From: a virus
Virus record (IMG/VR): IMGVR_UViG_3300035698_012912
Location: 1-37,165 of that record
DNA: 37,165 nucleotides
Reading direction: 5' to 3' (one strand)
The notes below the pieces were generated by a model. It worked only from the letters and a program-made list of their open reading frames with translations, made no database searches and had not been told where the DNA came from. Below are positions 7,155-27,889 of the stretch, piece by piece (the first letter of the stretch is position 1; every line of letters starts with the position of its first letter). The translations under genes and the position numbers were made by a program.

Positions 7155-7226
7155 GGGCTGGTAGCTCAAATGGAAGAGCACCGCGTTTGCAACGCGGAGG
7201 CGAGGGTTCGACTCCCTCTCGGTCCA
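7155..7226 (+). tRNA. tRNA-Ala (anticodon TGC)
   Basis: A full cloverleaf of 72 bases. Acceptor GGGCTGG pairs with TCGGTCC, including a G3-U70 wobble, the key alanyl-tRNA synthetase identity element. D stem GCTC/GAGC, anticodon stem CCGCG/CGCGG around TTTGCAA, T stem GAGGG/CCCTC around TTCGACT, discriminator A. CCA is not encoded. It lies between the portal stop and the GroES promoter, so it is probably processed from the portal transcript. A single tRNA inside a head module is unusual. Confidence 0.95.
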
Positions 7227-8357: not shown

Positions 8358-8377
8358 TACCGTTTCATTTTCGGGGT

Positions 8378-8419
8378 ATGCGAAACACTGGCAAACGCCG
8401 GCTGCCGCTGGCATTTTTA
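8378..8419 (+). promoter_or_regulatory. Capsid promoter, first copy of a 42-bp duplicated promoter
   Basis: Identical over 42 bases to 12627-12668. It begins ATGCGAAACACTGG and ends with the -10 CATTTT at 8412-8417, seven bases before ATG 8424. Conservation far beyond the -10 suggests a strong promoter or the binding site of a late activator. Confidence 0.8.
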
Positions 8420-12616: not shown

Positions 12617-12626
12617 TAGTCACGGC

Positions 12627-12668
12627 ATGCGAAACACTGGCAAACGCCGGCTGCCGCTGGCATTTTTA
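12627..12668 (+). promoter_or_regulatory. Tail-unit promoter, second copy of the 42-bp duplicated promoter
   Basis: Exact copy of 8378-8419. The -10 CATTTT at 12661-12666 ends seven bases before GTG 12673. It drives the 67-aa gene and the major tail protein. Confidence 0.8.
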
Positions 12669-23102: not shown

Positions 23103-24758
23103 ATGCGATTTGGACTAATTGATGGATGCCCCGCTGACATTCGACTGATCAGAATTTTAGAAGAGATCAGGGCCATGGGCTGCCCGGTCACATATCAGTC
23201 ATTGGATCGTTCACAGAATGCGATTGATTATGCCCGCTCACAGGGATCAAGCAAGTCAAGTCAGGCTGAACTCTATTACGGATTTACGCATGGATTACCT
23301 GGGTATAACCCGGCCAACCCTCCAGGGCAGAGCACACATGAGCGCGCATCTGATGGCGTCGCATATCCTGGACCCATTGGCCGGCGCCTTGCTTGGTGGC
23401 AGACCGGCATTGATTGTTCAGATGCAGCGACATTAATTGTTTGGCTGCGCAAGTTGGACATCGTCGCGACCATTACCTATCCCGGGAACCCGGCCGAGGG
23501 CCATCACATCAACATCCGAAAGGCGCCTATTGCCGGCCTTACCGATCGCGTTCTGAAGCGCGGCAATACTGGAAATGATATCAAGAAGCTGAATGGATCC
23601 TTGAATTGGTTGATTTCCCCGAATACCGACACCAGGTATTTGAAGGGCAGCGATAAGGGAGCGGCTGGAAACAAGTTCACCAAGGACACCGAGCATGCCT
23701 TAAAAAGATTTCAAAAAGAACATAAGCAGGTTGGCGACGGTGTCTATGGGCCGAACACTGAGAAGCAGCTTGAGGTTGCCATCCGGCGGCAGAAGAAGAT
23801 CATCGAACGGCTAAAAGATCAGCGCGATCATTTGCTAAATGTCGGATCGAAAAATTCCAAGACTTGGACACAGGCTCAATGGCGCCAGATGGTTAACAAG
23901 CTGCGCCGGCTCAAGACATACGGAGTTCGAAATAAGCCAGTCAATTTGCCAAACAGAGTGCCGGCCAAATATGACCGTCAGATTTATGAAAAGCGGATCA
24001 AGGTTCATGGACTAATCAACAAGGCCAAGCGCAATAAGCGCTGGACTGAGAAGGATTGGGCCACCGCTGTTCGCCTGCTTCGTAAGCTCGAGGAGTTGGG
24101 CATGCGCAACTCATCTCCGTCCATTGAACAGCCACCGCCACCGCCAAAGTTCAAAGATCCGAAGCCTAAGCCGAAGCCCAAGCCGAAGCAAAAAACACCA
24201 AAACCAAAAGATGACACGCCGCAAGTTATGCGAATCAGCATGCGCGGAATTGATTTCATCGAGGAATTCGAAGGATTGCCAAACGGCGGCAAGGTTTACA
24301 ACGACCCGCTCGGCCATGCGACAGTGGGATATGGTCATCTGCTTCACCTTGGACCAGCTACTGATGCTGACCGCAAGGGCATCTGGATAGACGACCAACA
24401 GAAGCCGGGTCAGTTGCTTAGAATTGAAGCTAGAATTCTTCTGCGCCAAGATCTAAATAATAGGTATGAGCCAGCAGTTCGCAAGCTATTTAGAAAGGGG
24501 GGCATTCTCCATGGTCTATTTACTCAGGAGAGATATGACGCGTTGGTTTCATTCGCTTATAATATGGGCGTTGGATCAGTTACCGGAAAACCGGTCACAG
24601 GATTTGAGACAATCGGTCGAGCAATTGAGGCCCGTGATATTGAGAAAATAGCGGCGTCATTCATATTATATCGCAACCCGGGTACAGCAGCAGAACAAGG
24701 ATTACGGCGCCGCCGAGAGCGAGAAGCAAAACTATTTCTGAATGGCTTATACCTATAG
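23103..24758 (+). CDS. Multidomain endolysin: M15-like peptidase, PG-binding, repeats, GH24 lysozyme
   Basis: 551 residues. The N-terminal domain (1-150) has STHERASDG (about 77-85) and EGHHINIRK (about 131-139), the zinc-site pattern of M15-type D,D- or L-Ala-D-Glu peptidases. A peptidoglycan-binding domain spans about 155-230. Two similar 27-residue units (KTWTQAQWRQMVNKLRRL..., KRWTEKDWATAVRLLRKL...) sit near 252 and 310. After a Pro/Lys linker (about 342-370), a GH24 lysozyme (about 378-549) has EEFEGLPNGGKVYNDPLGHA and TVGYGH, i.e. the catalytic Glu/Asp/Thr. Cuts host peptidoglycan during lysis. The stop TAG supplies the first base of the tRNA-like element. Confidence 0.85.
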   Translation: MRFGLIDGCPADIRLIRILEEIRAMGCPVTYQSLDRSQNAIDYARSQGSSKSSQAELYYGFTHGLPGYNPANPPGQSTHERASDGVAYPGPIGRRLAWWQTGIDCSDAATLIVWLRKLDIVATITYPGNPAEGHHINIRKAPIAGLTDRVLKRGNTGNDIKKLNGSLNWLISPNTDTRYLKGSDKGAAGNKFTKDTEHALKRFQKEHKQVGDGVYGPNTEKQLEVAIRRQKKIIERLKDQRDHLLNVGSKNSKTWTQAQWRQMVNKLRRLKTYGVRNKPVNLPNRVPAKYDRQIYEKRIKVHGLINKAKRNKRWTEKDWATAVRLLRKLEELGMRNSSPSIEQPPPPPKFKDPKPKPKPKPKQKTPKPKDDTPQVMRISMRGIDFIEEFEGLPNGGKVYNDPLGHATVGYGHLLHLGPATDADRKGIWIDDQQKPGQLLRIEARILLRQDLNNRYEPAVRKLFRKGGILHGLFTQERYDALVSFAYNMGVGSVTGKPVTGFETIGRAIEARDIEKIAASFILYRNPGTAAEQGLRRRREREAKLFLNGLYL

Positions 24759-24833
24759 GGGCAGACATGGTGTCGATCATGGTGACTGCCAAAGCGCGAC
24801 CATGAGACCTCGGTTCGAATCCGAGCTGCTCCA
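24758..24833 (+). ncRNA. Aberrant tRNA-like element
   Basis: 76 bases with an intact acceptor stem (GGGGCAG with CTGCTCC, one G-U) and a perfect T arm (CTCGG-TTCGAAT-CCGAG), discriminator A and no CCA. No canonical D or anticodon arm can be drawn. Instead TCATGGT (24777-24783) pairs with ACCATGA (24799-24805) around a 15-base loop. It may be a decayed tRNA, a tRNA mimic, or a relic of an old attachment site. It lies just upstream of the excisionase and integrase. Confidence 0.55.
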
Positions 24834-24865
24834 TGCCTCAAATTGAAATCAATGCCGATATATGT

Positions 24866-24871
24866 TATTAT
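24866..24871 (+). promoter_or_regulatory. Leaderless -10 of the excisionase gene
   Basis: TATTAT ends seven bases before ATG 24878. Confidence 0.72.
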
Positions 24872-24877
24872 GCCCCT

Positions 24878-25219
24878 ATGGAAATCGGAGAGGCTGAAAA
24901 GGCAGAGAATGAATTGACCCATCGCAACGCCAAGGAATGGGCGCGCATCTCTGGCATCTCCTATCGAACCATACTTTCAGAAGTTCGCGCCGGGTCTCTC
25001 GAGGCCATTCAGCCAGGGGGTAGCACTGGAACCATCTACATTTCTTCAAAGGCCTTCGAAGATTGGCGCGACGGCTGCCGAGTAAAGGTCAAGCTTCCAG
25101 ACCGCTCCTCTACTGGTGGCGGTATCCGTCGCCCGAATAGGTCCATGGCAAAGAAGAACCGAACCAGCCTTGACGATTTCCGCCTGGAGTCGGTCAGTGC
25201 CAGCCCCTTCATTTACTAG
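24878..25219 (+). CDS. xis: Excisionase-like DNA-binding protein
   Basis: A 113-aa protein when started at ATG 24878 as the promoter dictates; the upstream in-frame ATG 24833 overlaps the tRNA-like element. Residues about 14-55 match the MerR/excisionase-type winged helix (AKEWARISGISYRTILSEVRAG...IYISSKAFEDW). The basic C-terminus (about 70-100) is Arg/Lys-rich. It lies 13 bases upstream of the integrase, hence the Xis assignment: it would bend attP/attL DNA to favour excision. Confidence 0.72.
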   Translation: MEIGEAEKAENELTHRNAKEWARISGISYRTILSEVRAGSLEAIQPGGSTGTIYISSKAFEDWRDGCRVKVKLPDRSSTGGGIRRPNRSMAKKNRTSLDDFRLESVSASPFIY

Positions 25220-25232: not shown

Positions 25233-26588
25233 ATGATGGTCAAAAATACCGATTACGGAAAATTGGAAAGAGGGATTGAGCAATACAAGCTCAGCTCTGG
25301 ATCTCTGCGTTGGCGGGTAAGATTTAGCGATGAGAGCGGCAAGAATCGATCCAAGACATTTACCAATGTCAGCAAAGCACGATCATTCTATGCTGCTGTA
25401 CTTGTATCAGCGGAACGAGGCGAGCGCCCATCTGTATTCGCCGGCCAAGAGTCAATCACGCTGGCGGAATTTGCCGTAGATATATGGACACCAGAAGTCA
25501 AGAAGTACAAGGCTGCTGCGACCTGGGACCGCGACAAGCGGGTTTTCCACAATCACATTCTGTACAAGCTCGGCGACCGAGCTCTGTCGCAGATAGACAC
25601 CGAAGATATTCTTGACTGGAAGAAGGAGCGAGAGGATAAGGGCGTGGGAGCGGCGACAATTGCCAAGGCTCTTTCCCTACTGTCCTCAATATTTCAGGAA
25701 GCAATGATGCGCCAGCGCACAACCGGGGTTAAAGAGAACCCGACGATTGCGATCAAGAAGCCCAAGGTTTCGAACAATCGTGCCGTCAGGGTCTACCCGT
25801 TGGAAGCCGTGGAAATGATTTGCCAGCTGCTCCGGGCGCCACGGTTTAGTGATCGCATTGGAAAACGGCGCGAATTCTTGGCCTATCAGGACGCCGCATT
25901 TTTGGAGATCATGTTGCAGACTGGAATGAGGCCGGCAGAATTGATGGCGCTGAAGTGGGCTGACATTTCCGACGACCGTATTATTGTTGACAAGGCCTAT
26001 GGACTCGAGGGAATCAAGGAAACAAAGACCGGCAAGAGCCGTTCAATTCCGATTCTTGACACGCTGGAAAATGACTTGAAGATTCTGAGGCAGAAGCAGG
26101 ATAGGGATCAGGCGGCTCGGAAAAACCGGCCATCTGAATATGTGATCTGCTCGGCGACCGGAGACCATTGGCAGCAGCACGACAAGAACAATTGGCACAA
26201 GCGCCACTTCAAAAGCGCCGCTCGTAAGACTGTCAGCTGGTGGGCGGAGCTGAACAAGCGGGAAAAGTTGCCGGAAGATTTGCTGGATTCGATCAAGGGA
26301 TTACTGACAGCCAGGCCCTATGAACTCGGGCGCCATACCCATTCTGCCCTGCATCTGTCAACCGGTATTACGCTGATCGAGTTGAGTCAAATTCAGGGGC
26401 ACAGCGTCAGGACATTGTCAGAGGTATATGCCCACCAGTTGACCGTCAGGGCCGGCGCCACGGCCGCAGAAGAAATAACCGAAGCCCGGGATCGGGTTCA
26501 GAAATTGATGAAGACCGTTTATCAAGTGCAGTCAAGAAGCGAGCAAGAAGCGAGCAAACAAAACGAAAGAAGGATGCAGCCCGTATGA
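25233..26588 (+). CDS. int: Tyrosine integrase
   Basis: A 451-aa recombinase. The N-terminal arm-binding/SAM-like part (about 10-170) is followed by the catalytic domain. First Arg in QTGMRPAELMALKW (about 231), Lys near KTGKSRSIPI, the RHTHSALHL box (about 365-373), IQGHSVRTLSEVYAHQ with the His (about 390) and the catalytic Tyr (about 399). Completes phage integration at a tRNA-Thr gene using attP at 27716-27760. The stop overlaps the following gene (ATGA 26585-26588). Either ATG 25233 or 25236 can be used. Confidence 0.95.
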   Translation: MMVKNTDYGKLERGIEQYKLSSGSLRWRVRFSDESGKNRSKTFTNVSKARSFYAAVLVSAERGERPSVFAGQESITLAEFAVDIWTPEVKKYKAAATWDRDKRVFHNHILYKLGDRALSQIDTEDILDWKKEREDKGVGAATIAKALSLLSSIFQEAMMRQRTTGVKENPTIAIKKPKVSNNRAVRVYPLEAVEMICQLLRAPRFSDRIGKRREFLAYQDAAFLEIMLQTGMRPAELMALKWADISDDRIIVDKAYGLEGIKETKTGKSRSIPILDTLENDLKILRQKQDRDQAARKNRPSEYVICSATGDHWQQHDKNNWHKRHFKSAARKTVSWWAELNKREKLPEDLLDSIKGLLTARPYELGRHTHSALHLSTGITLIELSQIQGHSVRTLSEVYAHQLTVRAGATAAEEITEARDRVQKLMKTVYQVQSRSEQEASKQNERRMQPV

Positions 26589-27097
26589 GTAAAGAAATTG
26601 ATAGTGCTAAGAAGTCGATCAGCGCAGAGATCAATCACCACCAGGCCGAGATCTCCCGGCTCGAATCAGCGCTAAAGATTTTGGGCGGTGATGTCAAGGA
26701 CTCATCCACGGACAGCAAGCCCAAGGCCACCGGGAAAAAGCGTAGCAAGAGAGGCAAGCGCCCGGACGAGATCACAGAAATTATCAGTAATGATCCAGGA
26801 ATTAAGGCCAAGGCCATTGCTGATCAGCTTGGGGTCAAGCCACCTGGGATCTATGTGGTCACCAAGAAGCTGATCGCAGACGGCAGAATTGAGAAGGATG
26901 CCAACGGTGGTTTCAATCTGCCACAGGACAGACCCGAGCCTGAGGCAAGCGAGAGTGAGAAGAAGCAAGAAGAACCAACAGAAGAAGAGAGTATTGCTGA
27001 AATGGTTATTGGAGATAATCCAATTGAGACTGAGGCCATTGAGAAGAGCAGTTCAGCTTTTGGCAGCACCGGCAGTGATCGAGGATTTGGAAGCTGA
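26585..27097 (+). CDS. Winged-helix protein coupled to the integrase
   Basis: 170 aa. Residues 1-38 are a coiled coil, 45-62 a basic Lys/Arg stretch, and about 62-112 a winged HTH (EITEIISNDPGIKAKAIADQLGV...IYVVTKKLIADGRIEKDANGGFNL). The acidic C-terminal tail is Glu-rich. The ATG overlaps the int stop. Candidate regulator of the lysogeny module, perhaps acting at the palindromes at 27121-27231. No CI/Cro sequence similarity is seen. Confidence 0.7.
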   Translation: MSKEIDSAKKSISAEINHHQAEISRLESALKILGGDVKDSSTDSKPKATGKKRSKRGKRPDEITEIISNDPGIKAKAIADQLGVKPPGIYVVTKKLIADGRIEKDANGGFNLPQDRPEPEASESEKKQEEPTEEESIAEMVIGDNPIETEAIEKSSSAFGSTGSDRGFGS

Positions 27098-27120: not shown

Positions 27121-27162
27121 ATCCTTTCCGTATGGTAAATTTTATTACCATACGGAAAGGAT
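27121..27162 (+). repeat. 18-bp perfect inverted repeat downstream of the int operon
   Basis: ATCCTTTCCGTATGGTAA and its exact complement, separated by six bases (ATTTTA). A 42-base hairpin with no T-run; it could end the int transcript or be an operator or recombinase site. Confidence 0.85.
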
Positions 27163-27383: not shown

Positions 27384-27525
27384 CTTGAGGGGTTGGCCGC
27401 AATGCTGCCACCGGTCAATGACCCTGGTCGGCCGGCCATACTTGACCCTCCAGGATGCTAGAAACGGATCACGCAAAAGGTTCGATGAAAGTTACGCAAA
27501 AGGTTCTTCCGTAAAAAGCGGATAG
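27319..27525 (+). CDS. Small zinc-finger-like protein
   Basis: A 68-aa product with MRIQCHRCQHRDIC and WPQCCHR, i.e. Cys8, Cys11, Cys17 and the Cys29-Cys30-His31 cluster, consistent with a compact zinc ribbon. GTG 27319 is positioned by GATCAT. The C-terminal third is encoded by repetitive DNA (a 23-bp-period repeat) and may be unstructured. It sits immediately left of attP. Function unknown; regulatory or recombination-related use is possible. Confidence 0.55.
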   Translation: MSFMRIQCHRCQHRDICTTENSLRGWPQCCHRSMTLVGRPYLTLQDARNGSRKRFDESYAKGSSVKSG

Positions 27526-27548
27526 TTTCTTCCGTAAAAAGCGGATAG
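27471..27548 (+). repeat. 23-bp-period direct repeats left of attP
   Basis: ACGCAAAAGGTTC occurs at 27471 and 27494; a 22-bp unit (core CCGTAAAAAGCGGATAG) occurs at 27504-27525 and 27527-27548. All have a 23-bp period. The first 22-bp copy contains the stop of the zinc-finger ORF. Confidence 0.85.
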
Positions 27549-27595: not shown

Positions 27596-27626
27596 CCCCC
27601 ATATCACCCCCATATCACCCCCATTT
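27596..27626 (+). repeat. attP left arm: three 11-bp repeats
   Basis: CCCCCATATCA at 27596-27606 and 27607-27617, and CCCCCATTT at 27618-27626. Period is 11 bp (about one helical turn). Mirrored by the right-arm repeats at the same distance from the tRNA-Thr core. Confidence 0.75.
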
Positions 27627-27715
27627 AGATCACAGTCTGCGAGCTGCTGATATCAATAACGGCATAAACCTATTGGCAGAGCCAAGATATTTTGCCCCTA
27701 AGATTGCTGACCTAA

Positions 27716-27760
27716 TCCATGGTAAGGAAGGGGTCTCCGGTTCGAATCCGGATCCGGGCT
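27716..27760 (+). other. attP: attP core: 3' half of a tRNA-Thr gene (GGT anticodon)
   Basis: Contains the anticodon loop ATGGTAA (GGT), the 3' anticodon-stem strand GGAAG, T arm TCCGG-TTCGAAT-CCGGA, acceptor strand TCCGGGC and discriminator T. The 5' half of a tRNA is absent; identity to a tRNA breaks at the 5' side of the anticodon stem (AATCC instead of CTTCC). Integration here would restore the host tRNA-Thr. Flanked symmetrically by arm repeats. Confidence 0.82.
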
Positions 27761-27856
27761 TGTAGCAAACGCAGACAGAGAGCCACAAACAAGCACTATC
27801 GGCACAGAGTAATAACGGTCAGAATGTCGGTCTGTGACCCCATATACAACCAGTGT

Positions 27857-27889
27857 CCCCCATATGGCCCCCATATGGCCCCCATATGG
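27857..27889 (+). repeat. attP right arm: three 11-bp repeats
   Basis: CCCCCATATGG at 27857, 27868 and 27879. Same unit as the left arm in its first nine bases. Distance from the core end is about 96 bases, versus about 89 on the left. Confidence 0.78.

What the first reader, a model, noticed from the sequence alone, without database searches (positions are those of the whole stretch)
27596..27889. Symmetric attP: tRNA-Thr 3' half with three 11-bp arm repeats on each side
Seen: CCCCCATATCA-type repeats at 27596-27626 and CCCCCATATGG repeats at 27857-27889 lie about 90-96 bases from the tRNA-Thr fragment 27716-27760. Known: tyrosine integrases bind arm sites on both sides of the core, and tRNA 3' ends are common attB targets. 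Inferred: attP with integrase arm sites in direct triple arrays, one per helical turn.
Basis: partly seen in the sequence, partly recalled or inferred. Interest (0 to 1): 0.72.

Follow-up and report, generated by a model that had tools for sequence, protein, structure and literature searches.

The report
Phage integration site for tRNA-Thr gene
This is the DNA site that a temperate phage uses to insert itself into a threonine tRNA gene, probably in a freshwater actinobacterium, and the repeats on either side are most likely docking sites for its integrase, a familiar arrangement found here with more repeats than usual.

Summary
27716-27760 is the 3' half of a tRNA-Thr(GGT), flanked by three 11-bp direct repeats on each side (27596-27628, 27857-27889). 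An extra copy at 27838-27845 was missed. The window is one phage record with 127-bp end repeats and a tyrosine integrase gene at 25233-26588. The best attB candidate is tRNA-Thr(GGT) of a Solirubrobacterales (Actinomycetota) genome: 49 of 51 bases match 27716-27766, the two differences form one compensating T-stem pair, and host 5' half plus phage 3' half folds as tRNA-Thr. Distant integrase relatives in that order sit beside tRNA genes (34 of 60 places; 13 of the 34 are Thr(GGT)). Twelve of 14 relative attachment cores carry the same design: same-direction repeats at an 11-bp period on both sides, the left one starting 121-145 bp before the core. The attP reading is well supported. Binding by the integrase is inferred, and the exact host was not found. 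Known mycobacteriophage attP sites have the same build (Omega: pairs; Pixie: two left, three right), so this is a new member of a known kind with more repeats than usual.

The parts
24833..25219 (+). small helix-turn-helix protein directly upstream of int; candidate excisionase (RDF)
   Evidence: Pfam HTH_17 E 0.00047, below the curated cut-off; position is inference
25233..26588 (+). tyrosine integrase, 451 aa; predicted arm-binding N domain residues ~10-62, core-binding and catalytic domains (R233, K265, R367, H390, Y399)
   Evidence: Pfam PF00589, phrog_1, alignment of 21, N-domain model
27596..27628 (+). left arm array: three 11-bp direct repeats CCCCCATATCA, CCCCCATATCA, CCCCCATTTAG
27716..27766 (+). 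attP core: tRNA-Thr(GGT) 3' half from the end of the anticodon stem (TCC), loop ATGGTAA 27719-27725, to the discriminator T at 27760, plus 6 bases shared with the candidate host
27838..27845 (+). single extra arm-like copy CCCCATAT, at the distance where relatives have their first right-arm repeat
27857..27889 (+). right arm array: three identical 11-bp direct repeats CCCCCATATGG

Best explanation
27596-27889 is the attP of a temperate phage with a tyrosine integrase. The integrase exchanges strands at the anticodon loop of a host tRNA-Thr(GGT) gene. The phage's 3' half (27719-27760) replaces the host's, so the tRNA stays intact at one junction and a broken 3' half marks the other. The repeats on each side, in one orientation and one helical turn apart, are arm-type sites held by the N-terminal domains of integrase molecules whose catalytic domains sit on the core. 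This folds attP into the recombining complex and lets integration and excision use different subsets of sites. Shown: the sequence anatomy, host-type target, restored tRNA in silico, and the same layout in integrated relatives. Inferred: binding, crossover point, excisionase.
For: Integrase gene 1.1 kb upstream on the same strand. Best attB candidate 49 of 51 identical with a compensating T-stem pair and 6 shared bases beyond the tRNA; hybrid called tRNA-Thr(GGT) by ARAGORN, the reciprocal junction not. A relaxed 39-base pattern scan of the genome collection gave 3 loci, all Actinomycetota, two titled Solirubrobacterales. Integrase relatives in that order: 80 of 232 genomes at E<=1e-10; 34 of 60 places beside an intact tRNA with its 3' end facing int within 1 kb, 13 Thr(GGT), 5 Thr(CGT); 11 of the other 26 places have a tRNA 3'-half-like T arm nearby. 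Repeated 3' halves found in 12 of 23 elements, 14 cores, the repeat starting at tRNA base 31-33 in 11 of 14. Right and left arms of one element share a repeat of 11-bp period in the same direction at the family distance in 12 of 14 cores (G179 and G189 show it weakly). Period 11 enriched 3' of the tRNA: 14 of 33 against 5 of 603 control windows; no other period has a comparable excess; 17 of 33 against 33 of 990 in a second test.
Against: No integrated copy of this phage was found. The exact 40-base core is in no genome contigs record. Repeat similarity does not track N-domain similarity among 24 relatives (Mantel rho 0.03, 712 of 2000 permutations as high), so recognition by the N domain is not supported by covariation. 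Fold search of the N domain is not decisive. Two of 14 relative cores (G170, second G060 core) lack the paired layout. The integrase has a one-residue insertion in its second catalytic box (PYELGR against PY[D/T]LR).
Confidence: 0.9

Rival explanations
1. The repeats are excisionase (RDF) sites rather than integrase arm sites; the region is still attP.
For: RDF sites can be direct repeats one helical turn apart (phage 186 Apl, abstract start in search listing). A small HTH protein gene lies just upstream of int. No covariation of repeats with integrase N domains.
Against: The same repeat lies on both sides of the core at similar distances in 12 of 14 relative cores, as described for putative integrase arm sites of Omega, Giles and Pixie. 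A tblastn of the window's HTH protein against the relatives' loci gave no E below 0.02. That RDF sites usually lie on one arm is recalled.
Confidence: 0.1
2. The repeats are iterons or repressor operators that happen to lie beside a dead tRNA fragment.
For: Short tandem repeats in a gene-poor stretch; other repeats (27471-27546) lie close by.
Against: Two arrays of one motif bracket the tRNA half, and relatives show the same layout at integrated ends.
Confidence: 0.03
3. The working attachment site is the tRNA-like element at 24757-24832.
For: T-arm-like GGTTCGAATCC and a pairing acceptor stem.
Against: Not called by ARAGORN or by Rfam tRNA at gathering threshold; its 3' part matched none of 8 candidate host genomes within 3 mismatches. 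No arrays of the CCCCCATAT motif there.
Confidence: 0.02

Closest known systems
attP of mycobacteriophages Pixie (K3), Omega/BAKA (J), Giles, L5
   Same: Putative arm repeats of 10-11 bp (lengths given for Omega/BAKA and the K1 phages) flank the core; the Omega and Pixie cores are 44-47 bp and overlap tRNA genes, Omega's attB starts at the anticodon loop with attP 3' of int; Pixie has two repeats left and three right in direct orientation (passages read in PMC3203893 and PMC3706429)
   Different: Here three and three plus one extra copy, different repeat sequence, tRNA-Thr target, different predicted host group
Integrated elements of Solirubrobacterales found here (e.g. G134, G061, G065, G130, G129)
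   Same: tRNA 3'-half core from or near the anticodon loop, same-direction 11-bp-period repeats on both sides, homologous integrase (27-31% identity)
   Different: Mostly two repeats per side; each has its own repeat sequence; where an intact tRNA faces int nearby, int lies on the right-arm side, in the window on the left-arm side
Lambda attP/Int
   Same: Heterobivalent integrase with arm sites both sides of a core (passages read in PMC4880445)
   Different: Lambda has five arm sites and IHF/Xis/Fis sites; none of the latter tested here; attB not a tRNA (recalled)

Membership tests
Lambda-type (heterobivalent) tyrosine integrase system | Tyrosine recombinase catalytic residues | tested here: met
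   PF00589 E 1.8e-13; R233, K265, R367, Y399 invariant and H390 nearly invariant in 21 sequences; one-residue insertion in box II
Lambda-type (heterobivalent) tyrosine integrase system | N-terminal arm-binding domain | tested here: inconclusive
   Residues 10-62 modelled as three strands and a helix, mean pLDDT 75.9; arm-type domains 3rmp, 3jtz, 3ju0 appear at Z 3.4-4.0 among unrelated rows of like score; no Foldseek match at E<=0.001
Lambda-type (heterobivalent) tyrosine integrase system | Repeated arm sites on both sides of a core | tested here: met
   relatives
Lambda-type (heterobivalent) tyrosine integrase system | Integrase binds arm sites and core | not testable with these tools
   Needs footprinting
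Lambda-type (heterobivalent) tyrosine integrase system | Bending-protein sites (IHF, Xis) between core and arms | not tested
   23-bp-spaced repeats at 27471-27546 noted only
tRNA-targeting attP that restores the gene | Core identical or nearly so to a host tRNA 3' half | tested here: met
   49 of 51 in L004; exact 40-mer absent from genome contigs, so the true host is not in hand
tRNA-targeting attP that restores the gene | Recombined tRNA functional | tested here: met
   ARAGORN calls the hybrid tRNA-Thr(GGT); in silico only
tRNA-dependent lysogeny (phage tRNA replaces a destroyed host tRNA) | Phage carries an intact tRNA of the target isotype | tested here: not met
   Only tRNA-Ala(TGC) at 7155-7226 is called

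The most novel reading that the evidence does not exclude
Across a family of actinobacterial integrative elements, attP follows one fixed plan: same-direction arm repeats of 11-bp period at set distances on both sides of an anticodon-loop crossover. The plan stays while the repeat letters change from element to element, so that elements sharing one tRNA gene need not cross-recognise. This phage carries an enlarged version (three copies left, four right) whose extra copies could serve separate integrative and excisive complexes.
Probability: 0.35. Interest if true: 0.5.

Novelty: new member of a known kind. Interest (0 to 1): 0.33.

Why it matters
It gives a likely attachment site and a likely host group for a phage without close relatives in the collections searched. 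The comparison also yields a set of about a dozen integrase and arm-repeat pairs of one layout but different sequence, useful for asking how the N domain reads its site and for building integration vectors for uncultured Actinomycetota.

Tried and rejected
No close relatives: integrase and portal gave none in viral contigs, DNA of the int-attP region none in phages, the arm-array pattern and a 31-base core none in viral contigs. Phage and plasmid tblastn with the integrase gave only matches of about 22-27% identity in the rows listed. Terminase gave 7 weak phage records. Host order search with a 51-base pattern: only G003 of 232; phylum sample with the 45-base core: only G003 of 396. Portal relatives in 2 of 232 order genomes at 26% identity: weak support for the host group. 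Covariation of repeats with integrase N domains: none. Single-sequence model of the whole integrase was poor, mean pLDDT 37.3. Profile search of solved structures covered core-binding and catalytic domains only. In the structure searches the lambda and Tn916 N domains were not among the rows shown. Literature searches; searches turned up, in the rows listed, no title on phages of Solirubrobacterales (listing only).

Full report
What is there. The window is a single virus record of 37165 bases whose first and last 127 bases are identical, so it is probably a complete circular or terminally redundant genome. That 127 is a common assembler overlap length is recalled. It holds terminase, portal and minor head genes, tape measure, lysozyme, a small HTH gene (24833-25219) and a tyrosine integrase (25233-26588). 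About 1.1 kb beyond int lies a tRNA-Thr 3' half, 27716-27760, with three 11-bp repeats on each side. The arrays are far beyond chance. A further exact CCCCATAT lies at 27838-27845. All copies run in the same direction.

The target. The exact 40-base core occurs in no genome contigs record. A relaxed 39-base pattern found three loci, all Actinomycetota, two titled Solirubrobacterales, each an ARAGORN-called tRNA-Thr(GGT). The closest, L004 (a Solirubrobacterales MAG by its title; that its isolate name points to a lake is inference), matches phage 27716-27766 at 49 of 51 bases. The two differences are the two sides of one T-stem pair, so pairing is kept, and identity runs six bases past the discriminator. 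Upstream of 27716 identity stops. Joining the host 5' half to the phage 3' half gives a tRNA-Thr(GGT) by ARAGORN, while the reciprocal junction gives none. G003, the genome of L004, has no integrase match at E<=1e-10, so its site looks empty. In the order (232 genomes) only G003 matches a 51-base pattern, and in a phylum sample of 396 only G003 matches the 45-base core. So the host is probably a relative of this group, not a species in hand.

The relatives. The integrase finds matches in 80 of 232 Solirubrobacterales genomes. Regions holding the 60 best places were fetched. In 60 integrase places at 58 loci, 34 have an intact tRNA within 1 kb whose 3' end faces int: 13 Thr(GGT), 5 Thr(CGT), 16 of other kinds. 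Of the other 26 places, 11 have a T-arm fragment within 1.5 kb. Six of the seven nearest integrases on a FastTree tree are at Thr(GGT) or a Thr(GGT) fragment, but at these distances the tree is weak. Twelve of 23 elements, several cut by contig ends, show the repeated 3' half expected of integration, 14 cores in all, starting at tRNA base 31-33 in 11 of 14.

The repeats. In 33 integrase-tRNA loci, an exact 8-mer repeated at period 11 occurs 30-230 bases past the tRNA in 14, against 5 of 603 control windows; no other period shows a comparable excess. A second test gave 17 of 33 against 33 of 990. In 12 of 14 cores the same repeat lies on the other side of the core, in the same direction, starting 121-145 bp before it; in G179 and G189 the second copy is weak. 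Own right-left matches average 16.6 of 19 (window included) against 13.7 for 204 cross pairs and 14.2 for inverted own pairs. The window fits: its left repeat starts 122 bp before the core, and the extra right copy lies 77 bp past the tRNA, close to where most relatives have their first right repeat. Its right triple sits 20 bp further out. The enlarged number of copies is what sets it apart.

How it works. By analogy with lambda (PMC4880445, passages), N domains hold arm sites while catalytic domains act on the core. The window's N-terminal 71 residues model as three strands and a helix (mean pLDDT 75.9); arm-type domains of P4-like, HPI and HAI7 integrases appear among its weak structural matches, but not above unrelated rows. 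Binding is therefore inferred. Covariation of repeat and N domain was sought in 24 relatives and not found; the sample is small and repeat registers are uncertain.

What is known. Mycobacteriophage attP sites of this build are in print: CrimD has two pairs of 11-bp repeats (inverted across the core), Pixie two left and three right in direct orientation beside a 47-bp core at tRNA-Lys (PMC3203893, passages), Omega pairs of 10-bp direct repeats with a 44-bp core starting at the anticodon loop of tRNA-Leu, attP 3' of int (PMC3706429, passages), and further pairs are mentioned for attB-4 phages (PMC10865867, passages). The finding is a new member of that kind. The host group, the copy number (three left, four right) and the comparison across Solirubrobacterales elements are the new parts.

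Noticed in passing
24757-24832: tRNA-like fold (acceptor GGGGCAG/CTGCTCC, T-arm CTCGGTTCGAATCCGAG) filling the gap between lysozyme and the HTH gene; not called by ARAGORN
   Followed up: partly
7155-7226: tRNA-Ala(TGC) gene right after the portal gene
   Followed up: no
27121-27162: Near-perfect hairpin, z -7.7, between the 26585-27097 ORF and attP; terminator or operator
   Followed up: no
27471-27546: Two pairs of repeats at 23-bp spacing (ACGCAAAAGGTTC; TTCTTCCGTAAAAAGCGGAT) just left of the left array; possible excisionase sites
   Followed up: no
26316-26333: Integrase box II reads PYELGR, one residue longer than PY[D/T]LR of most relatives
   Followed up: partly
8375-8419 and 12624-12668: 45-bp direct repeat, 98% identical
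   Followed up: no
G054 and G060 elements: Two distal tRNA 3' halves downstream of one tRNA-Thr, suggesting elements stacked at one site
   Followed up: partly
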